The notes under the pieces were generated by a model. That model was not told the origin of the DNA, did not search any database, and worked only from the letters and a program-made list of their open reading frames with translations. Below, one piece after another: positions 16,275-29,891 of a stretch of DNA of 64,000 nucleotides. How positions within the stretch are numbered: position 1 is the stretch's first letter; each line of letters starts with the position of its first letter. Origin of the DNA: Chytridium lagenaria (lineage: Eukaryota > Chytridiomycota > Chytridiomycetes > Chytridiales > Chytridiaceae); NCBI GenBank assembly GCA_025449115.1, contig JAHLKC010000015.1:62001-126000 (forward strand), read 5' to 3'. The position numbers and the translations under genes are program-made.

Positions 16275-17980
16275 CTAAGGTGGAGGAACACCCTGATCAT
16301 CTTGAGGAGGTGTCTGATCATACCCAGCATCCTGTGGCGGTCCAACCTCAGGGACCTGACCTTCATTCGGATTGGGTTCACCCCCAGCCATCGGTGGAGG
16401 TTGCTCCATGTTTGCGTTTTGTTCAAACCCTGGTGATGGTGGTTGCTCCATACCACCTTGAGGAGCCTGCTCCCCCCCACCTTGAGGAGCCTGCTCACCA
16501 CCACCTTGAGGAACCTGCTCCCCCCACCTTGAGGACCCTGCTCTCCCCCATTCCTCATCCGATTCATCCTCCTCCTCGCAGACCTCCCCACCCGACTCCT
16601 CATCCCCCCGCCCTCCTCCTCCTCCCCACCGCATTGTTCTGAAACCTATTGAACCGGTTCCTCGCAGACTGTCGGAACCGGGTCATGCCGTGACGAGCGA
16701 AATCGTTCGCCTGAACGTTGGAGTCGGGACATGCCGTTACGAGCGAATCGTTGGCCTGAACGTTGGAGTCGGTTCAAACCTTGACGAGCAAAGTCTCTAC
16801 CAGCGCCCTTGAGACGGTTCAAACCTTGACGAGCAAGTCTCTACCAGCGCCCTTGAGACGGTTCAAACCCTGACGCGCAAAGTCTCTACCAGCGCCCTTG
16901 AGACGGTTCAAACCTTGACGAGCAAAGTCTCTACCAGCGCCCTTGAGACGGTTCAAACCTTGACGAGCAAAGTCTCTACCAGCGCCCTTGAGACGGTTCA
17001 AGCCTTGACGAGCAAAGTCTCTACCAGCGCCCTTGAGACGGTTCAATCCCTGTCGAGCAAAGTCTCTACCAGCACCCTTGAGTCTGTTCAAACCCTGACG
17101 AGCAAAGTCTCTACCAGCGCCCTTGAGACGGTTCAAACCCTGACGAGCAAAGTCTCTACCAGCGCCCTTGAGTCGGTTCAAACCTTGACGCGCAAAGTCT
17201 CTACCAACGCCCTTGAGCCTGTTTAAACCTTGACGCGCAAATTGCCCACCCATACCCTTGAGCCTATTTAAACCTTGACGAGCAAATTGCCCACCCATAC
17301 CCTTGAGCTTGTTCAACCCCTGACGCGCAAATTGCCCACCAATACCCTTGAGCCTGTTTAAACCTTGACTAGCCACCGCCCGCCCAACCCCTTCAACTTG
17401 TTCAAACCTTGACTCGCCAAACGTTGACCCATACCCTGTAAACGGTTGGTAGCCTTATTGAGAAGATTCTTGCCAAACCCTTGCACCTTGCTCCTTAGGC
17501 CCACCCATGAGCTTATTCCCAACGCCCTTCATCAACTTCCCACCGACCTTATTCAACAACTTTCCCCCAAACTTTTTCATCAACCCGCCTCCATACTTTT
17601 TCAACAAAGCGCCCCCAGCCTTTTTCAACAACGCTTTCCCCACCATCCCACCAGCACCACCTCCCATCAAACTAAGACCCCCCATTAAAGCACCTTTCCA
17701 TCCATTCTTGGTCATCCCATTAAACTCTTCCATGGCCATCTGTCCAGCAAACTTTCCAGCGGCCATGACACCTTTCCCAATGGCTTTGAACCCTTTGCCT
17801 AGATTCCGTCCCAGGTTTTTGACGAAACCACTGCTGGCGACTTTTTTGACGGCGTTTTTGACGCCACGAAAGATTTTCTTGAAAAAGGGGGCCGAGGTGA
17901 TGATGGCGCGACGGGTGAGAGCGTGGGATGGGGTGACGTTGGGTTGGGCTTGTGACATGAACATTTTTTTCGTTTTTGGG

Positions 17981-18037
<57 letters not shown>

Positions 18038-18903
18038 AATGTGTCTGTGAATGGCAGGGGGGTTTTGTTTGGGTTGATCGGTGAAGCTTGCGGCTTAATT
18101 TGACTCAACACGGGGAATTTATTATTACTTACCTTGAGAGTGAAAAGGCGGGTGAGAAACCGGATGGAGAAAAGTGGTCAGGAGAGAGGTCCTCGGGGTG
18201 AGTATAGGTGTCGTCCATCAAGTCTGTGTGGTCATTGAGGTCTGTATGGGCAAGATTCTCATGAGTCATGTCTGGGTTGGTGGTGAGATCCTTTTGAGTG
18301 ATATTGTTGGGGATATCCTTGGTGATGACGGCATCAGCAAAGTGAAGGGAGATGGCGTCGTTGGCAAAAGAGATGGAATCTGCATGACTAAAAAGTAGGT
18401 CCAGTATAGGAGAGAGAAAGCGGAAAGGTTAGGGTTACCTGATGGCAAGAGGTTCAAGACCGATGGATGATGCTGTGATGGATGGATAGATGGGAGAAGA
18501 AAAAAAAAAAGAGAGAGAGGTTAAACGAATGAATAGGTGATGATGAGTGGTGATCAAAAATGGATTCATATAGGATAAAGTAGAAAATATAAAGGTCTTT
18601 GCATATGCCCATGCATCGAATGGATAAAACAACGTCATGGCATATGTCCCATGCATTCAATATGCATCCAATATCCATTCAATATCCAATATCCATCCAA
18701 TATCCATTCAATATCCAATAATAATACCAGTAACAATATCAATATGCATCCAATATCCATTCAAATATCCAATAATCATACCAGTATAATACAATAACCA
18801 ATAATCTATATAAATAGATAAAATTACCTTTGGATACAGCATAAAGTGCCATCATCATCATCCACACCAAAAGGCATGATTGAATGAATGCGAGTGATGG
18901 CAT
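16275..18903 (-). CDS. Secreted polycationic repeat preproprotein, paralogue 1
   Basis: Minus-strand gene of four exons. Exon 1 (18903-18828) encodes a signal peptide starting MPSLAFIQSC. Exon 2 is a 34-nt microexon (18472-18439). Exon 3 (18387-18133) is acidic, with SFANDA, many Asp/His (HTDL, THPEDLSPD) and a terminal FSPAFSL. Exon 4 (17948-16275) carries HALTRR, a dibasic Kex2-type site, then a Gly/Lys-rich polycation with GWKGALMGGLSLMGGG and GGALLKK-type motifs. At least twelve 15-residue repeats (ARQGLNRLKGAGRDF) follow, then a Gln/Gly/Pro-rich tail ending in VPPP. Exons 1 to 3 splice in phase. Frame breaks occur at the exon 3/4 junction, near 17450, and near 16830 (AGCAAG versus AGCAAAG in sister repeats). 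The plan resembles antimicrobial or pore-forming peptide precursors, where an acidic pro-part masks the cation. It could equally be a wall- or polyanion-binding structural protein. No known family is recognised. Confidence 0.68.
16780..17410 (-). repeat. 45-bp tandem coding repeat
   Basis: A 45-bp unit is repeated at least 12 to 14 times within exon 4 of paralogue 1. On the plus strand it reads as GCAAAGTCTCTACCAGCGCC with CTTGAGACGGTTCAAACC. Several neighbouring units are identical in DNA; the units at the 17250-17400 side are older variants. It encodes the 15-residue amphipathic motif. Confidence 0.9.
17986..18034. repeat. 49-nt A homopolymer (T49 on the coding strand)
   Basis: An uninterrupted A run on the plus strand. 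It lies in intron 3 of paralogue 1, so the transcript has about 49 U just upstream of the 3' splice site at 17949. The exact length may be affected by sequencing. Confidence 0.9.
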
Positions 18904-19330
18904 TGAATATATATATAATAGAGAGAGAGAGAGAGAGAGAGAGATAGATATAGAATGTAATAATGTACAGTGCTATATATATAATCAGATGTATTTATTT
19001 ATTTACTTGATATGTAAATAGCAATATAGATATTGTATTTACATGCATTAATTATGATGATGCAGGTATATATGTCTATTGTGTTATAGATATTATTTAA
19101 AATATAGATAGATACATACATACATACATACTATGGATATATTTATAATATATATTATATATAGAGTGTACATGCAATATAATTATCTGACAAGCTGACA
19201 AGCAGGTAACATTTCATTTGATTTGATTTATTTAATTATATTTATTCTTTTATTATTATTCTTATTCTTATTCTTATTATAATGTATTATTCTTCTTTGA
19301 TTAAATTATAATACACATGTAATACATAAT

Positions 19331-19366
<36 letters not shown>

Positions 19367-20182
19367 TTCGAAAATGTGTCTCAACAAAGCATTTCTTTTA
19401 ATTGATGATTATATATTCGGTATAATAAATAAATAAATAATATATTAATTAATAAAAACATTCCTCTTTCTATACATATAAAGTAAAAAGTGTTTGTGTC
19501 TGCAATGCCCCCCCTTGGAGTATATTATTATAGTATGCGCTCAGCACAATTCTCTATTATATATATTTATTATATATTTAATACATATTAGTCATTAATA
19601 TAATAATACACTGCAACTTTTCTTAAATTTCTTTCTTTCTATATTTATAATGTATTCATTTTTAATCATCCCATCCCATCCATTCATTATTCTCATTCCC
19701 ATTCATTACTCCCATCCCCATTATTCTCTTATAAAAACAAACAGATAGATGCATGTACTGCACATCATATATAATGGTAGAGAGAGAGCGCACAATCCTA
19801 TCTTATTCAACATGAAGAAAAGAAAAAGAAAAGCAAGACGACACAAGCGATAAAACATCAACAACGACAGACGACGAAAAAATACAGACAGCATGCAATG
19901 TGAATCAAGTGGTAGAGCTATCCCTCTCCCCTCTCCCAAACCTTGAAAGCAAGAAACAAAACACTGCAGGATAAAAGGTGGTAGGTTCTATGAGCACACG
20001 CAAATACAGATGAGACAATGCGACAAATAACGAAAAAAAAAAACAAAAAACTAATATGTCAAAAGGGAATAAATCAACCATCCGGAAAACATTCAACAAC
20101 CCACACCGCCTTTCCATCCCAACCACAACCTACCAACCAACGAGGAATCCCGCCCTTCTTAGTCAAAACCACCATGTTGCTG
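18904..20182. other. AT-rich microsatellite-filled intergenic region
   Basis: Upstream of paralogue 1 and downstream of paralogue 2. It contains (GA)n near 18920-18945, tandem ATACAT units near 19113-19132, (TTATTC)n near 19245-19280, (AAT)n near 19332-19366, and repeats of ATCCAATATCCATTC just inside the gene near 18660-18770. Very AT-rich; no gene seen. Confidence 0.6.
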
Positions 20183-22456
20183 CTATTCAGGAGGTGGTTG
20201 TTCAAAAGCAGGCTGTTCTTGAGGAGGTGGTTGTTCAAAAGCAGGCTGTTCTTGAGGAGGAGGAGGTTGTTCAAAAGCAGGCTGTTCTTGAGGAGGTGGA
20301 GGAGGAGGTTCCTCAGCAGCAGGAGGAGGAGGACCTGGATCACCACCACCACCCATTGGCTCACCACCACCACCACCTCCACCCATTGGCTCACCACCAC
20401 CACCACCACCCATTTGCTCACCACCACCACCACCACCCATTTGCTCATTACCACCACCCATCATATCCTGCCTCGCCTCCCTCATCATATTCTTCATCCT
20501 GCCCCTTGCAGACCTTCCAGCCCGTTTCAACATATTCCTTCCAGCCCTCCTCATCCTCCCCATTGCATTCCTCTTGAATCGGTTCATACGGTTCCTCGCC
20601 GACCGCTTAAACCGATTCATCCCATTCCGCGCGAAACGTCTACCAGCACTCTTGAACTTATTAAACGCATTCCGACCAAACCGTCCACCCGCACGCTTGA
20701 ATCTGTTCATGCTGTTCCGAGCAAACCGTCTACCAGCACTCTTGAACTTGTTAAAGGCGTTCCGGCCAAACCGTCCACCCGCACGCTTGAACCTGTTCAT
20801 GCTGTTCCGACCGAATCGTTTGGCGGCACCCTTAAACTTGTTAAAGCGTTCCGACCGAATCGTTTGGCGGCACCCTTAAACTTATTAAAGGCGTTCCGAC
20901 CGAATCGTTTGCCGGCACCCTTAAACTTATTAAGGGCGTTCCGACCGAATCGTTTTCCGGCACCCTTAAACTTGTTAAAGGCTTTCCGACCAAACTGTTT
21001 TCCGAAACCCTTCAACTTATTAAACCCGTTCCGAGCAAACCGCTTCCCCATGCTCTTGAACCGGTTGGTAGCCTTATTCATCAAATTCTTGCCGAACCCC
21101 TTCACCTTGTTCCTGATACCTCCCATGAGCTTTTTCCCAACCCCCTTCATCAACTTCCCACCCACCTTTTTCAACAACTTCCCACCCACCTTTTTCAACA
21201 ACGCGCCTCCCACCTTTTTCAAAGCAGCCCTCGCCAACATCCCACCAACACCACCACCAAGCATACTCAATCCACCCATCAACATCCCCTTCCACCCTCC
21301 CTTCACCATCCCTTTCACTTGATCCAACGCCATCTTCCCAGCAAACTTTCCCGCCGCCACAATCCCTTTCCCAATCGCCTTAAACCCCTTCCCTAACCCT
21401 TTCCCGACGGTTTTCGCTACATTCTTGACACTGTTGGCAGCCTTCTTCACCACGTTCCCCACTTTACTGACGGCGTTCTTGATCCCTTTGAAAAGCTTTT
21501 TGAAGAAGGGCGCCGTCGTGATGATGGCTCGACGGTGGAGAGCGTGAACGGGTGTCGTGTCTGGAGGGCTGCATTAATGGAGAAAATTTTTTGGGGGTTA
21601 GTGACAAGTTTGGTTTTTTTGATCATTTGTGTCTGATGCCCCCGCACAACACACTTGCCTTTGAAGAGAGAAGGCGGGTGAGAACCCGTCTACGGAAAAA
21701 AGGTCTGGAGAGAGGTCCTCAGGGTGGATATAGTCTGTTCCATCATCGTGATGAACGTCTGGTGAGAGGATATCGGGGTGAAAAAAGTCTGTTCCATCCT
21801 CATGCTGAACGTCATAAACATCCGGATGTGAAACATCGTGTGTTGTGTTTTGGGGTGTCACGTCCTTTGGTACGGTAGCCGTCAATTCCAGACGAAACGC
21901 ATCATTCGCAAACGACACGGCCGATGCATCACTGTAGGGTTTGTTGTTTTTTTTTATAAAGAAAAGAGTGAGTCTGAGGTTTGAAGAAATGGGGGGTACC
22001 TGGCGACGAGGGGTCAAGGCCGACAGATGCTGATGTCGTTGAATGGATGGTGCGTTTTTGTGTCGTGAAGGTGGGGTTGCGGGATGAAAAAAAAAAATGT
22101 TGTTAGGTATATTCGAAATGGGCGGCTCCATCAATGCGACATTCGAGGGTCAGACGACAGTCTTGTCGCAAACATCCCGTTCACCTCCATCGCATCCTCC
22201 ATCCATCAACGAACCAATTCCAATAACTCCATCCATCAACGACCAAAAACCATATCCCCCATTCCAACTCCCATCCATCCAACAAAACAACAAAGCGGAA
22301 CCAACTGTTCTCACAGTCCACCAAACAACAACACCTCCATCCTTCTCCGTCAAACGCCTTCCACCAAACACAACACATACCTGCAGACACCACAGCCGTC
22401 CAGGCCGTCCATGCCACCACCCATCGAATGAAAACGATGGATGGGGTCAACATCAT
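20183..22456 (-). CDS. Secreted polycationic repeat preproprotein, paralogue 2
   Basis: Same four-exon plan as paralogue 1: signal exon 22456-22381 (contains VFIRWVVAWTAWTAVVSA), microexon 22029-22000, acidic exon 21931-21659 (SFANDA, repeated HPD/HPED, closing FSPAFSLQ), and cationic exon 21568-20183. The last exon opens with VHALHRR (dibasic site), then RRAIITTAPFFKK, the GKGFKAIGKG block and GGALLKK motifs. Fifteen-residue repeats of the RFGRNAFNKFKGAGK type follow. It ends in a methionine/glycine/proline-rich tail with EQPAFEQPPP repeats. Exon 3 ends at a GC donor (GCAAGT) instead of GT. Two one-base breaks are evident by comparison with the sisters: a C-run in the microexon and a missing G near 20846 in a repeat. 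Likely secreted, cleaved after RR, and strongly basic. Function unknown. Confidence 0.68.
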
Positions 22457-24092
22457 TCAAAGAAACCAGATATCCTCTTCACAGCTCAAAAAGAACCACC
22501 TCTATCAAACCACAGTCTTCGCGATCAAAGGCGTGGGGGTGATGTAAAGCGACAGTGTATCAAAAAACGTTATCACGACTCGTTGACCCCCTTTATGTTC
22601 CAAGAAAGAAATCAAAAGTCGTTTTGAGGATCCGCCGAAAAGACAGTTCCTCAAAATCAACCCTTTGTGTCTCACTTTGTTGGACTTTCCATCAAACACA
22701 CTACTGACAATCTTAAAGAACTCCGACATCAAATGAAAGCCGTTTTGGGCTAAGGGCAGTAATGTCGTAATTCATTGGCCTTCATCCCTTTGTAGGGGTA
22801 CGTTGCCATATCATGGTGTTAGATGAGGAAGGCGTCATGTTTCACGGCGCAGTCACATTTTATGAGGGAAAGCGCAGCGAGAAAAAAAAAAGCGTCGATC
22901 GTTCTGTGTGGAAACGACCTGTTGAAAAATCGGGATGGTTTTTGAAGACGACGTTTCGTGAATTTCAGGCAGGTCATGACACTTGGTATGGTTGAACGAC
23001 GTATGACTTTCCTTGGAGTTTAGGCACGTAGAGCTGAAAACTCGAGACACTCACGGTTGAAAATGCATGAAGATAGTAAGTATGAGTGAAATGCGGGAAG
23101 GTCTCGTATGTATCTATTTAGGGAACACTGAGATGTAACAAACGTACTTTGAGTTTTTGCGTGTAAACGTTCATGCATTTCTTTTCATTTGCGTATAGCG
23201 GATGTAAGAAAAAGGACGTTCCTCATGCCCTTTTATTTTGAGCAACGGTTGGGTGTAAAGAATGTTTGGCTATATCTACTTTTATATCAACTTTTCGTGT
23301 TGAACGTGTTCGCGTAACTGAGAGGGGCTGTTGACCCAAATACACCCCAATGAAATTGTCATGTCAAGCAATGATTACGAAAATTTGTAAAGGTGGAGTA
23401 TAGTGAAAGTACATTGACGGTTTGTTATAAAAAAAAGTCTGGAAGGAGAGGGTCAAGAATTTGGATTCTGGAGATGACAGCACGTATTTATTTGGTTCTT
23501 AACTTCATAGTGTTCCCCGAACTTGTATCTCTAAAAGTATTATAGATGCCATAATCCAAAAGAACTGCAACGTTTCCAAAAAAAACCATGTCGCTCCTTT
23601 CAACTTTATTACAAGATGAAGCCGTGTAAAAAAAATATTTACAGCACGAGCAGAGTCCGCAGAGGGAGTTTCAAACAGGGGAAAATGTTGACGCGAACCG
23701 AGATGTCATGTTTTCGCTTACGAATGAGAAATATCATCAGGCTTAACCGCGAACCTCAAAGGTCTGAGCGTGGATATGTGAAGAACTTCCAGACACATTC
23801 CCCGTAATGTATAATGTGGTCACCATTGAAGCAAAAAACAAAGGGAAGGGGGGGGGCAGACGACAGTGTCTTTTTTTTGACAATTTCCTCATGGCGCAAT
23901 GGCGTGGAATGATGCGCATGTCTTTTAGAATGGATTAAACACCAGCCGATGGCATCTCGTTTCTTGTGCGATTAGTGATGGATACCCTTTTTTCATGAAG
24001 TGTCCGAAAGGTGTAAAGACAATCAAAAAGAACGTGTGGATAACTCTTTATCAAGGAACAAAATGGCGGCGTCAACTTTAGAGGGTGAAAAG
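22457..24092. other. Intergenic, no convincing gene
   Basis: The first part is probably the promoter of paralogue 2. The rest has only short frames without recognisable content, for example one at 22813-22995. A G-run lies near 23850. Nothing further can be supported. Confidence 0.45.
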
Positions 24093-24520
24093 AACTGAAA
24101 GAAAGGAGAGGAAGAGGTGATGAGCGATAATATTGGCAGCACCAGTGAATCCACACCTCTTCATTTTGCGAGGGGCAAGATGGTGAACAAAATATTTATC
24201 AAGGCATGCAAAAGAACAAGTGAAAAAAATTAAATTTACGAACGGAAACGACAACGACGATTGCGTCGGCCACCACGACCTTGACGAATCCACACCTTCA
24301 AACTTTGCGAGGGACAAGATGGTGAACAAAAAATCAAGAGAGGCATGCCAAGAACAATAGAAAAATGAGTGAAAGAAAGGAGAGGAAGGGGGGATAATTG
24401 GGGAAGGGGTGATGAGCGAATCAGTATTGGCAGCACCAGCGAATCCACACCTCCATACTTTGCGAGGGACAAGATGGTCACCAAAAATCAAGGGGAACAT
24501 GCAAAAGAACAAGAGAAAAA
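24093..24520. repeat. Tandem partial copies of the 3' end of the RG-rich gene
   Basis: The segment containing TTGCGAGGGRCAAGATGGT occurs near 24166, 24304 and 24460. The first copy is followed near 24228-24280 by a degraded duplicate of the last codons and stop of the RG-rich gene (CGAACGGAAACGAC, matching 24531). This looks like tandem duplication of a 3' CDS end plus UTR. Confidence 0.7.
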
Positions 24521-24527
24521 TATGAAT

Positions 24528-25315
24528 TTACGAACGGAAACGACGACGTTGACGACGACTGCGTCGGCCACCGCGACCTCGACGTCCAGGCTTACGACGA
24601 GAAGCACGTCGTCTAGCCGCACCACGTGATCCTCCACGATTTTTCTTTTTAGGAGGGGGAGGGGGAGGAGGCTGATCAACAGGTGTCATCGTACCACCAC
24701 CGGCATCAGCACTGGCACCCGCACCAACATCTTGACCGCCACCTTCAGATTCCGGTTGTTGATTTTGATGATGAACAAGTGCACGACGGGACAAACGAAG
24801 ACGACGTCCACCACCACCCATCATACGCTTCATTCCTCCACGCATACCACCACGCATACCACCACGACCACGACCACGTTTCATGCCACGACCACGACGA
24901 CCTCTACGTCCACGACGACCTCTACGACCACGACGACCTCTACGGCCACGCTTCATGCCACCCCGTCCGCGACCACGTCCACGTCCACCCCGTCCACGAC
25001 CCATACCACCACTGCCTCCACCAGGCTGCACTGCTTCACCACCACCGACTTGACCAACTTCATTTCCTGCAGGAGCAGCTTCTTGAGGAGCAGCTTCCTG
25101 GGGTGGGGATTCATTCCCACCTTGACCTTCCGGGGTACCTTCTTGACGACGAGACAGGGATAGACTTGAAGGAGTAGCAGCTTGATGTACCCTTAGTGAA
25201 AAACATGCTAAGGTTTCTTACCTCCGTTAACTGCAATCACCCATGTTGATATGACGGTAACAAGACCGACGATGAAAAGCCATCGTAAGCCTCTTGACGG
25301 CCTGATGGAAGACAT
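24528..25315 (-). CDS. Secreted Arg/Gly-rich (GRR)n polycationic protein
   Basis: Exon 1 (25315-25222) encodes a signal peptide starting MSSIRPSRGLRWLF with a hydrophobic core ending WVIAVNG. The donor GTAAG is followed by a very short intron (about 29 nt). Exon 2 runs from about 25192 to the TAA at 24528-24530. It begins with a SLSLSRR dibasic site, then a Gln/Glu/Pro/Gly-rich linker (PQEAAPQEAAP), then RGRG and tandem GRR repeats. A Gln/Glu/Gly spacer and a run of prolines follow, and the end is Arg-rich (RRSRRQRRRFRS). The splice as read is one base out of phase, so either a frame break or a different junction exists. It is not a sequence paralogue of the Gly/Lys family, but has the same signal, dibasic and polycation layout and sits among them. 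Secreted RG-rich chains bind polyanions such as nucleic acids or acidic polysaccharides; that role is inferred. Confidence 0.62.
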
Positions 25316-26598
25316 CGTTCTATGAGAATGGGGAATGTGGGTTTGAGAGTTTTTAACGTTTTCTCGTTGGAGACACGGTTGTCTTGAAGGTTTTTTCACA
25401 TGTGTCTTGAAGTTGTCAGAGGTGTTTAAAAGGCAATTTTGGGGCAAGGGTGATACCAGGACGCCGTTATGGAGTTGCAGTTCAGCCATTCGACAGTTTG
25501 GTCTTTCTTTTTGGTTGATGGAGACACTGAGTGTGTTGGACAATGGAGCCGTTTATGAAATGACGGGGTTTATTGATGCGTGAAGGGGTTTGAGTGTGAT
25601 GGGGTCCTTGCTGTGAATTGAGAAACCCTCTCCATCCATTCACGACGTTGTGTTTTGTTTCAACACTTTTTTCGTGATTGTCTTTCTGGATTCATTGTAC
25701 CTATGGGTTCCTTTCGACACTGCGTGAATGGAAGGATTGGACGATTTGGTAGGTAATTCGGCGCTGTGTGTGTAGCTTCAACCTACCGTGAAGATGGGGT
25801 TGTTTTTTTTTTTACTATATGCCGATCATTGTGTGGAGATGAGAATGCACCCACTGTTTTGAGGCGAGTAAGCTAAGTTTTCAGGAATCGGTAGGATCAT
25901 CCTAACGCATTCACGAATCGGTAGGATCTCTGGTCAATACTTTTCGTCAAAACTTCTACACCTTATCAATAAATACAACTTTCAACGCGACGTGCAACCC
26001 TTTTGATGTTAGACCTTCCACATTGCAAGTCACTATTTGCGTGTTCATAAACATAAAAGTATACCCATCTATTCATATGTCTGCACTCGTAGACCTTCCT
26101 TTCATTGTTGAATTTTTTGAATGCCTACTACATTTGCATGGTTTTAAGGGCAGAATGTCTACCTGCTGCAGTTAAGGCAATCGGATGTCTAGACGTTGCT
26201 GCAGTAAAGGTAATCAGATGCCTAGGTAGACGGTGCTTGCTGCAGTAAAGGTACCAAATCGGGGAATTTTCAAACCGTTTATCGACAAAGTATCCACAAT
26301 GGAACAAGGGAAGACTTGGCATTTAAAATGGATGGCCTTGACTTTGTGCGCATGAAAATAACACCCAATAAGTCTAATCAGGGAATAATGCCACAAAAAC
26401 AAGACCTGCTCAGCAAAGCTTACATAATAACGCATGCGTTAGCTGACGTTTGCCATATCCTATGATGCTTGGAAGGGCTGCCCTGCTCCTAACGTCCAAG
26501 GCAGGACTGCGTTCACGCGTGATGATGGCTTCTTCCTAATCACTTACACCTTTTCCCAGCGGCTTCATTCCTAATTTGTTTCTTTATATGGTTTGCAG
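25316..26598. other. Intergenic, no gene; small repeats
   Basis: Contains a duplicated AATCGGTAGGATC (about 25885 and 25915) and the short tandem repeat annotated at 26164. It is otherwise promoter and spacer DNA between divergent secreted-protein genes. Confidence 0.5.
26164..26258. repeat. Three tandem copies of a 35-40 bp unit
   Basis: TGCTGCAGTAAAGGTAATCA-like sequence occurs near 26164, 26199 and 26237, with intervening GATGyCTAGrygrACG. It lies 350 bp upstream of the small peptide gene. Confidence 0.7.
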
Positions 26599-26608
26599 GT
26601 ATAAAAGG
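26599..26608 (+). promoter_or_regulatory. TATA box of small peptide gene A
   Basis: GTATAAAAGGGC lies 65-70 bp before the ATG at 26671. A similar GTATAAAAAGGG lies about 80 bp before peptide gene B. Position and sequence fit a classical TATA element. Confidence 0.65.
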
Positions 26609-26670
26609 GCATCCGCATCCCTTTTCCTTATCATTCATTCCCCAAACCTCATATCTCGTTTTCGACAACC

Positions 26671-26859
26671 ATGAACTTCAAGTCCCTCTTCCTCGTCGCC
26701 GCTGTTTTCATTGGAGCTGCTCTTGCGTACCCCGGTATTGGTGGTGGCGGTCCCCCCAGGTAAGAGCTTGCTTAAATAAGGAGTGTAATTAAAAACTCAT
26801 CAATCCTTATTACGTTGTTTCTTAGGGATGATTCCCCGTGCGCCTTGAACTGCAATTGA
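26671..26859 (+). CDS. Small secreted two-Cys peptide A
   Basis: Two exons, 26671-26759 and 26826-26859, with a GT-AG intron of 66 nt in phase 2. The product is 40 residues. MNFKSLFLVAAVFIGAALA is a textbook signal peptide, leaving a mature peptide of about 21 residues. That peptide has a GGGG/PP stretch, then acidic DD, then SPCALNCN with two Cys. Peptide gene B at 31250 has the same exon layout, intron phase, signal-peptide style (MNxKxxF) and a CAxNC motif, so the two are paralogues. A TATA box precedes the start. It is probably a secreted effector-like, signalling or defence peptide; the function is not known. Confidence 0.72.
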
Positions 26860-27425
26860 TCAAGCCGTCTCGAATCACAATTGAACGGCCTCCTGTCAAG
26901 TCGACCTCTCCCTGCCAAGAAAGGAATATAAAATAAATAAACAATGGGATTCTTCGTTTCATAGCTGCAGTGCCAATGTATCTATCTATTACTTATGTGG
27001 TGTATTTTACTGTAGACATTGGAGAAAGGGTTCGTGCAATCAACGCAGAGGACAAGAATTCCGAAAGGTCCGTCTTCTGGGCTTCCCTTTTGGCTGGGAT
27101 AATGCTCGTCTCCAAGGGATGACGCCCATTCCAAATTCAACCAATCACCTGGATCTTTGAACTTGTCGGAGTTACATGAAAAAATTAGAGACACCTTCCT
27201 CAAAACCATGTGTTGACGCCCATTCCAACCTGTCTCTTATACTTTTGGGTCGCGCAGCCAACAGAGGGCGTACTGCATCGCCGGCCACTCTGTCTCTCAT
27301 TTTTCTGGTAGTTGATTTGATATAAGGAAGGCGTAAACTATATTGTGGTGTACAAAAAGTATCTTCTCTGAGATCAGAGGGCAAGTGGAGTGAATCATAC
27401 CTCTACTGTCTGGAGAACACTTTGG
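26860..27425. other. Intergenic, no gene seen
   Basis: Holds the 3' UTR of peptide A and the promoter side of paralogue 3. The phrase TGACGCCCATTCCAA occurs twice (near 27120 and 27213). Confidence 0.45.
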
Positions 27426-29891
27426 ATGATGGCATCCCCATCCGTTGCTTTCATCCGATGGGTGGTGGTGGTGTTGATGGCTATTGCTGTTTCGGCAGGT
27501 ATGAATATTTAGAAATGTTTGCTTCAGGAATGTTGGAGGAGGGAGGCTTGTTGGATGGAATACCAATGTATGGGACGTTTCTGTGTTATAAAGTATATGG
27601 GTGCTGATATGAAGGAATGACGATACGGTTCCAGCTTTTTTCTTGCCGGATGGACCTTATTGTGCGCTGGATGAAACTATTAGATCTTGCGAGAACAGAT
27701 CTAATCCTCTTGCCGTCATAATAACCATTGTCACTTGTTTTCCGACTGTTTTGATAGCATATTCCTAACTGCTTTTCTTTCAAACTCGCTGGCCATCCTT
27801 CGCTTACACATCCATCATCAATCATTCATTCATTCATCCATCCCATTGATCAACAACAGAGTCCCTTGGGTCTCTCGCTGTTAGGTAACGGAAAACCCAC
27901 TTTCCTTTTTTTTCTCGAGACACACTTCTCATCGTTTACAAACAATAGTGATGCAGCCATCATACCTTTTTCCAACGATGCCATCACCCATCACTTTGGT
28001 GCTGCCGTCACAAAGGAAATATCATCAGAGAACACAAACGGACGAAGACTTTACCCATGAGGACTTCACACACACAGACCTTACTCATGAGGACTTTTCG
28101 CATGAAGCCAACGACGACTCTACTTATTCTTCCCTCGATGACTCTTCTCTGGATGAAATCTCACCTGAATTCTCTTTCCAACGGTAACTACCCAACCCAC
28201 TCCAAATACCGACTAAAATTGAATCCTTATCCACAGTGAAGAAACAATATCCAATGTCAACCCATTGACCAACACCTCCCCAGCCCACCTTACTCGTCGC
28301 GCCATCATCAGCGCATCCCCCATCAAGAAAGCCATCGCAAAAGCCGTCAGTAAGGCTGCTGGAAAAGCAGTGCAAAAGGCGGTACAATCTGGAAAGAACG
28401 CCGTTCAGAAAGCTGTGGGAGGTGGGAAAGGAAAGGGGGTGGGAATGGCGGTGGAAAGCCTTCTAAGCAAGGAGGGAATGGCGGTGGAAAACCTCCGAAG
28501 CGAGGGGTAATGGGGGTGGAAAGCCTTCTAAGCAAGGGGGAATGGCGGTGGAAAGGCTGTGAAGAAAGGTGGAAATGGCGGTGGAAAGCCTTCTAAGCAA
28601 GGGGGGAAGGGGGTGGTGGAAAGCCTTCTAAGCAAGGGGGAAAGGGTGGTGGAAAGCCTTCTAAGCAAGGGGGAATGGCGGTGGAAAGGCTGTGAAGAAA
28701 GGTGGAAATGGCGGTGGAAAGCCTTCTAAGCAAGGGGGAAAGGGTGGTGGAAAGCCTTCTAAGCAAGGGGGGAAGGGTGGTGGAAAGCCTTCTAAGCAAG
28801 GGGGGAGGGGTGGTGGAAAGCCTTCTAAGCAAGGGGAAAGGGTGGTGGAAAGCCTTCTAAGCAAGGGGAGGGTGGTGGAAAGCCTTCTAAGCAAGGGGGA
28901 AGGGTGGTGGAAAGCCTCCTAAGCGAGGGGGGAAAAGCGGCGGAAAGCCTTCTAAGCAAGGGGGGAAAAGCGGCGGAAAGCCTCCTAAGCGTAGTGGGGG
29001 AAAAGTGGTGGAAAGCCTTCTAAGCGCGGCGGTGGGAAAAGCGGTGGAAAGCCTCCTAAGCGTAGTGGGGGGAAAAGTGGTGGAAAGCCTTCTAAGCGCG
29101 GTGGAGGTAAAGGTGCCAATGCAGGTGGTGTGAAAAAGAAAAAGAAAGGAGGAGGTATTGGAGGGTTCTTCAAAAAACTTGGTCGAGGAATCGGTAACGG
29201 CTTCAAAAAGATTGGCAAGGGTCTGAAGAGTGCCGCAAAGCTAATAGGAAAAGGGATAAAAGCCGTTGGGAAGATGGCTGTAGACCATGTAAAGGGCATG
29301 TTTAAGGGTGGATAAAAGGGTTTTTGCTGGAGGTCTCAGTATGCTTGAGGCGGTATTGGTGGAATGTTGGCAAAGGCGGCGATAAAAAAAGTTGGAGGCG
29401 CGTTATTGAAAAAGGTTGGAGGAAAGTTGTTGAAAGGTGCGGGGAAGAAGTTACTTGGAGGTGTAAGAAATAAATTGAAGAATGTTGGTGGGAAACTTCT
29501 TCGGAAAGCTTCCGACGGGATAAAGGGAGCTGGCAGTCGTCTCGCTCGTCAAGGATTAAATAAGCTCAAGCAGGCTGTGTGGAAAGATCAAGGATGCTGG
29601 TAAACGTTTAGCTCGTCAAGGAATAGACAAGTTGAAGCGGTCGGCGAAGAATCGTATGAACGGGTGACGAAGAACGCGATTTCTAAGTTGAGTCGGGCCG
29701 GACAGAATCTCAAGAAAAGTGCTGGAAGGGCTGCGAAGAGGAAGATGAAGGAAACGATGAGGAATGCCAGGGATGAAATGATGGGTGGTGGACGTGTTGA
29801 TCAACACCCTCCTCCTGGGGCTGCAGCTGTTGAACCAGGACCCCCTCCACCTGATGCTCAAGGCCCTCCGCCCGAGGCTTTCGGTGGTTAA
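27426..29891 (+). CDS. Secreted polycationic repeat preproprotein, paralogue 3
   Basis: Plus-strand member of the family. Exon 1 (27426-27498) encodes the signal peptide (ASPSVAFIRWVVVVLMAI). Microexon 2 (27860-27884) has 25 nt encoding ESLGSLAV. Exon 3 (27949-28183) is acidic, with SNDA, a run of DFTHEDFTHTDLTHEDF type and closing SPEFSFQ. Exon 4 (28237-29891) starts with HLTRR, a dibasic site, followed by IKKAIAKAVSKAAGKAV, which is strongly amphipathic. A long Lys/Gly tract of GGGKPSKQGGK repeats comes next, then the shared GKGLKSAAKLIGKG and GGALLKK blocks, and a Pro-rich tail (GPPPPDAQGPPPEA). All four exons are in phase. Frame breaks lie near 28040, several times between 28450 and 29110, near 29310-29350 and near 29570-29660. 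As sequenced the gene cannot give one chain; the conserved blocks beyond each break argue for recent or technical indels. Confidence 0.66.
28440..29110 (+). repeat. About 33-bp repeats coding GGGKPSKQGGK
   Basis: GGTGGTGGAAAGCCTTCTAA followed by GCAAGGGGG recurs about fifteen to twenty times with variable G-run lengths. The changing run lengths shift the frame repeatedly, so this stretch is either slippage-prone or mis-sequenced. Confidence 0.8.

What the first reader, a model, noticed from the sequence alone, without database searches (positions are those of the whole stretch)
16275..29891. New family of secreted, self-masked polycationic repeat proteins
Three paralogues share signal-peptide exon, microexon, acidic His/Asp propeptide ending in FSP(A/E)FS, a dibasic RR site with RAII(T/S)(A/S) after it, a Gly/Lys block (GKG.K.IGKG, GWKG..MGGLS, GGALLKK) and Pro- or Gln-rich tails. 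Two also carry 15-residue amphipathic repeats. I know of no described family with this plan. A strongly acidic pro-part attached to a cationic amphipathic chain is the classical layout of antimicrobial or membrane-active peptide precursors; a cell-wall or polyanion-binding structural role is the alternative. Sequence and architecture are observed; function is inferred.
Basis: partly seen in the sequence, partly recalled or inferred. Interest (0 to 1): 0.92.

Follow-up and report, generated by a model that had tools for sequence, protein, structure and literature searches.

The report
Chytrid-specific secreted polycationic helical proteins
Three neighbouring genes in a chytrid fungus appear to encode a family of secreted, very positively charged helical proteins made with an acidic leader, with no relative found so far, which look built to stick to negatively charged membranes or surfaces, though what they do is untested.

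Summary
Three paralogues (A, B at 16275-22456, minus; C at 27429-29891, plus) share an exon plan: hydrophobic first exon, 25-34 nt microexon, His/Asp-rich exon, then RR|AII and a Gly/Lys chain. A-B codon comparison shows purifying selection in core and acidic exon. All three have frame breaks; so does the essential CCT2 gene of this assembly, so consensus error is likelier than decay. The host is Chytridium lagenaria. Two word-filtered searches of 5.8 billion proteins gave no convincing homologue, nor did viral, prokaryotic, phage, PDB, Pfam or NCBIfam searches. All eleven cationic segments tested are more amphipathic than shuffles; the acidic exon and tail tested are not. Two claims weaken: 'self-masked' (B: -16 and -14 against about +100) and 'released 15-residue peptides' (A's array has no dibasic site). 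Best reading: a kexin cut frees a long amphipathic polycation that binds anionic membranes or polymers; membrane activity slightly preferred to a structural or adhesive role. New sequence family, known kind of design; function untested.

The parts
18828..18903 (-). gene A exon 1, putative signal peptide MPSLAFIQSCLLVWMMMMALYAVSK
18439..18472 (-). gene A microexon (34 nt)
   Evidence: GT donor and AG acceptor read from the sequence
18133..18387 (-). gene A acidic His/Asp-rich exon, net -13
   Evidence: B-A pS 0.78 pN 0.31
16275..17948 (-). gene A exon 4: RR|AII at 17887-17913, Gly/Lys core to 17500, 15-residue repeats about 17370-16700, RRRR at 16603-16626, Gly/Pro/Gln/Glu tail to the stop; several frame breaks
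22381..22456 (-). gene B exon 1, putative signal peptide
22000..22029 (-). gene B microexon (30 nt as read, one base out of phase)
21659..21931 (-). gene B acidic His/Asp-rich exon (GC donor), net -17
20183..21568 (-). gene B exon 4: RR|AII at 21508-21534, core to 21118 with Gly-rich hydrophobic stretch 21214-21297, 15-residue repeats about 21042-20516, Gly/Pro/Gln tail; a frame break near 20850
27429..27498 (+). gene C exon 1, putative signal peptide MASPSVAFIRWVVVVLMAIAVSA
27860..27884 (+). gene C microexon (25 nt)
27949..28183 (+). gene C acidic exon, with a frame break inside
28237..29891 (+). gene C exon 4: RR|AII at 28295-28321, cationic helix 28316-28423, 33-nt Gly/Lys/Pro/Ser array 28441-29097, core blocks from 29160 and 29349, degenerate 15-residue units about 29535-29660, Pro-rich tail from about 29778; several frame breaks

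Best explanation
The three genes make secreted pro-proteins. A signal peptide sends the chain into the secretory pathway; the acidic His/Asp-rich region travels with it and is removed by a kexin-like protease at RR|AII; the mature product is a long Gly/Lys/Arg chain, poor in acidic residues and cysteine, that is largely unstructured until it meets an anionic surface, where it folds into amphipathic helices (15-residue units, four turns each) and binds. I think the most likely use is membrane activity against competing microbes or the colonised organism, with a structural or adhesive polyanion-binding role close behind. Shown here: paralogy, exon plan, purifying selection, charge layout, amphipathicity. 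Inferred: secretion, the kexin cut, disorder-to-helix change, membrane target.
For: Purifying selection on core and acidic exon between A and B. RR|AII(T/S) is at the same place in A, B and C. The genome has two matches to the kexin P-domain family PF01483, both over its cut-off. Mean hydrophobic moment at 100 degrees: in 5 of 5 A and B segments above the largest of 100 shuffles; in 6 of 6 further tests (three C core or post-RR segments, one C tail helix, and the first 45 post-RR residues of A and of B, which overlap the cores) 0 or 1 of 300 shuffles reach it, while the B acidic exon and B tail are not amphipathic (299 and 250 of 300 reach it). B's in-frame mature piece has 1 acidic residue and no cysteine in 229; A's core 2 acidic and no cysteine in 136. 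A Gly-rich hydrophobic stretch is shared by A and B, C matching its second half. AlphaFold2 on the B piece is all helix, best in the repeats (block pLDDT 72-91), but weak overall (mean 61.6, pTM 0.24).
Against: No activity, expression or proteomic data. The chain is far longer than usual antimicrobial peptides (recalled). The acidic parts offset under a third of B's positive charge (-30 against +102), though charge balance is said not to be strict in frogs either (PMC7073735). A's repeat array is not acid-free: 8 Asp in 177 residues. The hydrophobic stretch peaks at Kyte-Doolittle 1.3 over 19 residues, low for a membrane-spanning segment by the usual rule of thumb (recalled). The Pfam antimicrobial matches fail their controls. 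The A array's best library match is to a collagen-like adhesin (2.9e-13, 49 of 500 bits needed), which its controls do not reproduce; if anything that leans to the rival.
Confidence: 0.45

Rival explanations
1. Structural or adhesive polycation: the mature chain is laid down in the wall, cyst coat or attachment pad and binds or condenses polyanions, as silaffins do with silica; the acidic region keeps it soluble during secretion.
For: Long repetitive Gly/Lys chains, Gly/Pro/Gln tails and, in C, a 33-nt array of about 20 units suit a matrix protein. The precursor layout (signal peptide, acidic domain at residues 20-107, strongly basic repeats, RR motifs) is that of diatom silaffin Sil1p (PMC4557024, passages). 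The charge mask is incomplete, which matters less for a matrix protein. The A array has a sub-threshold match to a collagen-like adhesin, not reproduced by reversed or permuted controls.
Against: Strong amphipathicity in all eleven cationic segments tested and a Gly-rich hydrophobic stretch are not needed for a simple polycation. No cell-wall or chitin-binding domain among the Pfam matches of the ten pieces scanned.
Confidence: 0.33
2. Kex2-processed repeat protein (KEP): the 15-residue repeats are cut into short peptides that act as signals or toxins.
For: Gene B as read has KR/RR sites at about the repeat spacing (FGRNALNKFKGAGKR, FGRNAFNKFKGAAKR and others), which by eye fits the published rule of at least three repeats of at least 8 residues between dibasic sites (PMC7329392, passages). 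KEPs are reported in 14 of 19 Chytridiomycota strains surveyed there.
Against: A's 211-residue array piece has no KR, RR, KK or RK, while A and B share core and acidic exon under purifying selection, so release of 15-mers is not the shared function. The KR/RR number in B is near what its composition gives (5 and 9 against shuffled means 3.6 and 7.1).
Confidence: 0.12
3. Decaying pseudogenes or simple-repeat sequence without function.
For: All three genes have frame breaks; family copies were found on one contig only. CCT3 of the same assembly has no break in 509 codons, so errors are not everywhere.
Against: Substitutions between A and B are strongly synonymous, and the essential CCT2 gene of the same assembly has frame breaks, so consensus errors can explain those here.
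Confidence: 0.1

Closest known systems
Diatom silaffin precursor Sil1p
   Same: Signal peptide, then an acidic domain of about the same length, then a strongly basic repetitive part with RR motifs (PMC4557024, passages)
   Different: No sequence was compared directly; host is a fungus; units here are Gly/Lys/Arg amphipathic; A's array has no RR at its repeats; silaffin chemistry not testable here
Acidic-propiece antimicrobial peptide precursors (amphibian type)
   Same: Signal peptide, acidic propiece, cationic mature part; a net-charge-balance hypothesis links the two (PMC7073735, passages)
   Different: Mature chain is hundreds of residues; charge not balanced in B, though that source calls the requirement not strict; no specific sequence match once controls are applied
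Kex2-processed repeat proteins (KEPs) of fungi
   Same: Apparently secreted fungal repeat protein; B has dibasic sites at about the repeat spacing
   Different: A's array has no dibasic site; the KR/RR site seen at the same place in all three is the one before the core
Metagenome protein P0001 (364 aa, jgi hypothetical protein)
   Same: Acidic first part, then a Lys/Arg-rich part with a KKVGGKL stretch; only hit of the profile search, E 5.8e-3
   Different: 35% identity over 81 residues of K/G/L-rich sequence; Ala-rich; no signal peptide by eye; convergence judged most likely

Membership tests
Kex2-processed repeat proteins (rule of PMC7329392) | at least 3 tandem repeats of at least 8 residues, each between dibasic sites (KR, KK, RK, RR) | tested here: inconclusive
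   B as read in two pieces appears to meet it by eye; A's array piece does not (0 dibasic in 211 aa); C not assessed as a whole because of frame breaks (rule)
Kex2-processed repeat proteins (rule of PMC7329392) | ER signal peptide | tested here: inconclusive
   hydrophobic N-terminal exon in all three; no signal-peptide predictor available
Antimicrobial peptide precursors with acidic propiece | amphipathic cationic mature part | tested here: met
   11 of 11 cationic segments above shuffles in A, B and C; B acidic exon and B tail not
Antimicrobial peptide precursors with acidic propiece | propiece charge roughly balances mature charge | tested here: not met
   B: -16 against +59 and +43 in two open pieces, tail -14. 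The source says balance is generally supported but not strict (PMC7073735), so this is a weak exclusion
Antimicrobial peptide precursors with acidic propiece | membrane-disrupting or antimicrobial activity | not testable with these tools
   needs a bench assay
Pfam frog antimicrobial families PF08110, PF08023 | profile match specific to the family | tested here: not met
   A array matches at 5e-7 and 3.9e-6 (over cut-off for the whole protein, 0 single stretches), but the reversed array matches CAP18_C at 2.2e-4 and a unit-permuted array BA14K at 3.4e-8, both also over cut-off; B's repeat piece matches nothing
Silaffins | signal peptide, acidic domain, basic repeats in that order | tested here: met
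   layout only, compared with passages of PMC4557024
Silaffins | RXL processing at repeats, modified Lys and phospho-Ser, silica precipitation | not tested
   RXL motifs were not counted; modifications and silica activity cannot be tested here

The most novel reading that the evidence does not exclude
Chytridium lagenaria has evolved, in its own lineage, a polymeric membrane-active weapon or glue: instead of many short peptides it secretes single chains of many fused amphipathic cationic helices, with an acidic His-rich leader that could act as a pH-sensitive rather than a charge-balancing mask, freed by a kexin cut. The paralogues would differ in whether the array stays whole (A) or is further cut (B).
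Probability: 0.22. Interest if true: 0.7.

Novelty: new variant of a known kind. Interest (0 to 1): 0.47.

Why it matters
If expressed, this is a secreted protein family with no relative found so far, in a little-studied fungal phylum and perhaps missed by annotation, and a natural example of a very long fused chain of cationic amphipathic helices. It would give a testable model of how such a chain is kept harmless during secretion, and of how chytrids attach to or act on other organisms.

Tried and rejected
Tried without result: protein search of the B 258-aa piece (1538 candidates scored, none at E <= 0.01); profile of five family pieces (only the 7993 candidates sharing most words were scored, one hit at 5.8e-3, judged convergence); viral contigs (23 pattern matches, none confirmed), GTDB genomes (114 pattern matches, none confirmed), phages (none), PDB (best E 0.75), Pfam on ten pieces, NCBIfam on five window pieces, Rfam on the window (none). 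Searches used one protein, which by the tool's description finds close relatives only. The NCBIfam match of the A array to a collagen-like adhesin (2.9e-13, 49 bits against a cut-off of 500) was not reproduced by reversed or permuted controls (best 0.0016); I set it aside for its distance from the cut-off but it is not excluded. Shared 11-letter words in 800 bases upstream: one between A and B, five simple-repeat words between A and C, none between B and C. No fold search was run, because pTM was 0.24. Literature: searches for chytrid cationic secreted peptides and for Chytridium lagenaria listed nothing that describes this family; they cover open-licence papers only.

Limits: the protein searches consider only candidates of 0.55 to 1.75 times the query length, and genomes of other chytrids could not be searched as DNA, so an unannotated relative would be missed. 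The shuffles for dibasic sites in A's array treat tandem copies as independent and overstate significance; only the plain count is used. An A tail charge of -23 counted a stretch that is probably out of frame; from GEQVPQ on it is -13.
Full report
What is there. The window lies in a 41.9 Mb, 356-contig eukaryotic genome. A CCT3 chaperonin spliced from it matches a Chytridium lagenaria protein at 100% on a contig of the same length, 121,583 bases, so the host is that chytrid (Chytridiaceae); a strain Arg66 genome is listed in PMC9993110 (passages), but the strain of this window was not tested. On its life, the library gave one passage comparing single cells on Oedogonium to this species (PMC10470594, passages). 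Three paralogues were confirmed: A (16275-18903, minus), B (20183-22456, minus), C (27429-29891, plus). Whole-genome searches with the B exon-4 piece, the B acidic-exon frame and the A repeat array gave 9, 2 and 5 matches, all in this cluster (the tool calls its counts lower bounds); the acidic-exon search found A but not C.

Gene plan. In each gene a hydrophobic first exon (A 76, B 76, C 70 nt) is followed by a microexon (34, 30, 25 nt), a His/Asp-rich exon ending FSPAFS or FSPEFS, and a last exon with RR|AII(T/S). B uses a GC donor after exon 3. The lengths of exons 1 and 2 agree in phase between A and C; B's microexon and A's fourth exon are one base out, and C's exon 3 has a break. In A and B the last exon has FFKK.F.G.KNAV.KV, GKGFKAIGKG, GWKG.LMGGLS..GGG.GGM and LKK.GGALLKK, then 15-residue units (45-bp arrays at 16766-17373 and 20637-21042) and Gly/Pro/Gln-rich tails. 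C has parts of the same core, an extra array of about 20 units of 33 nt coding Gly/Lys/Pro/Ser (28441-29097) between its first helix and its core, and a few degenerate 15-residue units.

Frame breaks and whether the genes live. No gene is one open frame. As a control the chaperonin gene CCT2 was read: I count about five frame breaks by eye. One is firm: two pieces in different frames match residues 41-96 and 97-184 of PDB chain 4v81_B (CCT beta) with no room for an intron; a further pair that cancel out shows as an eight-residue mismatch inside an otherwise good match. CCT3 has none in 509 codons. So breaks in this assembly also strike an essential gene, unevenly, and can account for those here. 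Codon comparison shows selection: core B-A 134 codons, 96 same residue, pS 0.59, pN 0.17, differences by codon position 26/19/63; acidic exon 79 codons, 42 same, pS 0.78, pN 0.31, positions 31/15/52; 0 of 1000 bootstraps with pN >= pS in each. B against two C core pieces also gives 0 of 1000 each; A against the second C piece 5 of 1000.

Novelty of sequence. The B piece found no relative among 1538 scored candidates. A five-piece profile found one of 7993 scored candidates at 5.8e-3: P0001, a metagenome protein with an acidic start and a KKVGGKL stretch, judged convergence. That the database could have shown a relative is supported by CCT3: it holds that protein of Chytridium lagenaria itself, of Irineochytrium annulatum in the same family (89% identity) and of many other chytrids. 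No Chytridium lagenaria protein surfaced for this family, so it may be unannotated within the lengths searched. Viral, GTDB, phage, PDB, Pfam and NCBIfam searches gave nothing that I accept. The Pfam frog-antimicrobial matches of the A array (5e-7, 3.9e-6) have no single passing stretch, and reversed and unit-permuted versions give other matches over cut-off (2.2e-4, 3.4e-8), so they are best taken as repeat artefacts. The match to a collagen-like adhesin (2.9e-13, 49 bits where 500 are needed) was not reproduced by those controls and stays open.

Physical character. B acidic region including RR: net -16, 9 His; A acidic exon: -13, 7 His. B chain: +59 in the first open piece and +43 in the second, tail -14; A's in-frame core +24, its array +36 in 177 residues, its tail -13. 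In B the acidic parts therefore offset under a third of the positive charge, and 'self-masked' is overstated; yet PMC7073735 (passages) says balance is not strict in frog precursors. Mean hydrophobic moment at 100 degrees exceeds the largest of 100 shuffles in 5 of 5 A and B segments, with peaks at 92-96 degrees, and is reached by 0 or 1 of 300 shuffles in 6 of 6 further A, B and C segments, two of which overlap the first five; the B acidic exon and B tail do not pass. A 15-residue unit at 96 degrees per residue is exactly four turns; pentadecads are known in coiled coils (PMC8203680, one passage and a reference entry), though the Gly content here argues against a stable coil in water. AlphaFold2 gives helices only, mean pLDDT 61.6, pTM 0.24.

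Processing. RR|AII(T/S) is the one KR/RR site that I saw at the same place in all three genes. A and B may share another just after the array (GRRRRAGG in A; GRMRRAGR in B). Two kexin P-domain matches exist in the genome. Cutting at KR/RR gives fragments of about unit length in B and none in A's array. By eye B would satisfy the published KEP rule (PMC7329392, passages; PMC6339444, abstract and two sections) and A's array would not, so release of short peptides is not the shared function.

How it most likely works. A cut at RR frees a long amphipathic polycation that binds anionic membranes (0.45) or polymers (0.33). The layout is that of acidic-propiece antimicrobial precursors and also of diatom silaffin Sil1p (PMC4557024, passages). 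Neither membership is established: charge balance of the first is not met in B, and the repeat processing and chemistry of the second were not tested. Verdict: a real, selected, apparently lineage-restricted secreted family with a known kind of design and untested function; interest moderate.

Noticed in passing
window 24528-25315, minus strand: Between B and C lies another apparently secreted polycationic gene: hydrophobic N-terminus MSSIRPSRGLRWLFIVGLVTVISTWVIAVNGG, a dibasic site, then an Arg/Gly-rich chain with 20 KR/RR sites in 229 residues. No second copy found in the genome, no Pfam or NCBIfam match. Exon limits by eye.
   Followed up: partly
window 26671-26859, plus strand: A small two-exon gene model with signal-like start MNFKSLFLVAAVFIGAALAYPG ending SPCALNCN: a very short secreted peptide in the same cluster (read only).
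   Followed up: no
L013 (G000:C9:314000-316300): The essential CCT2 gene of this assembly carries several frame breaks, so other gene models in this genome may be truncated too.
   Followed up: partly
P0001: A metagenome protein with a strongly acidic Glu-rich first part and an Arg/Lys-rich second part: an apparently convergent acidic-plus-cationic design.
   Followed up: partly
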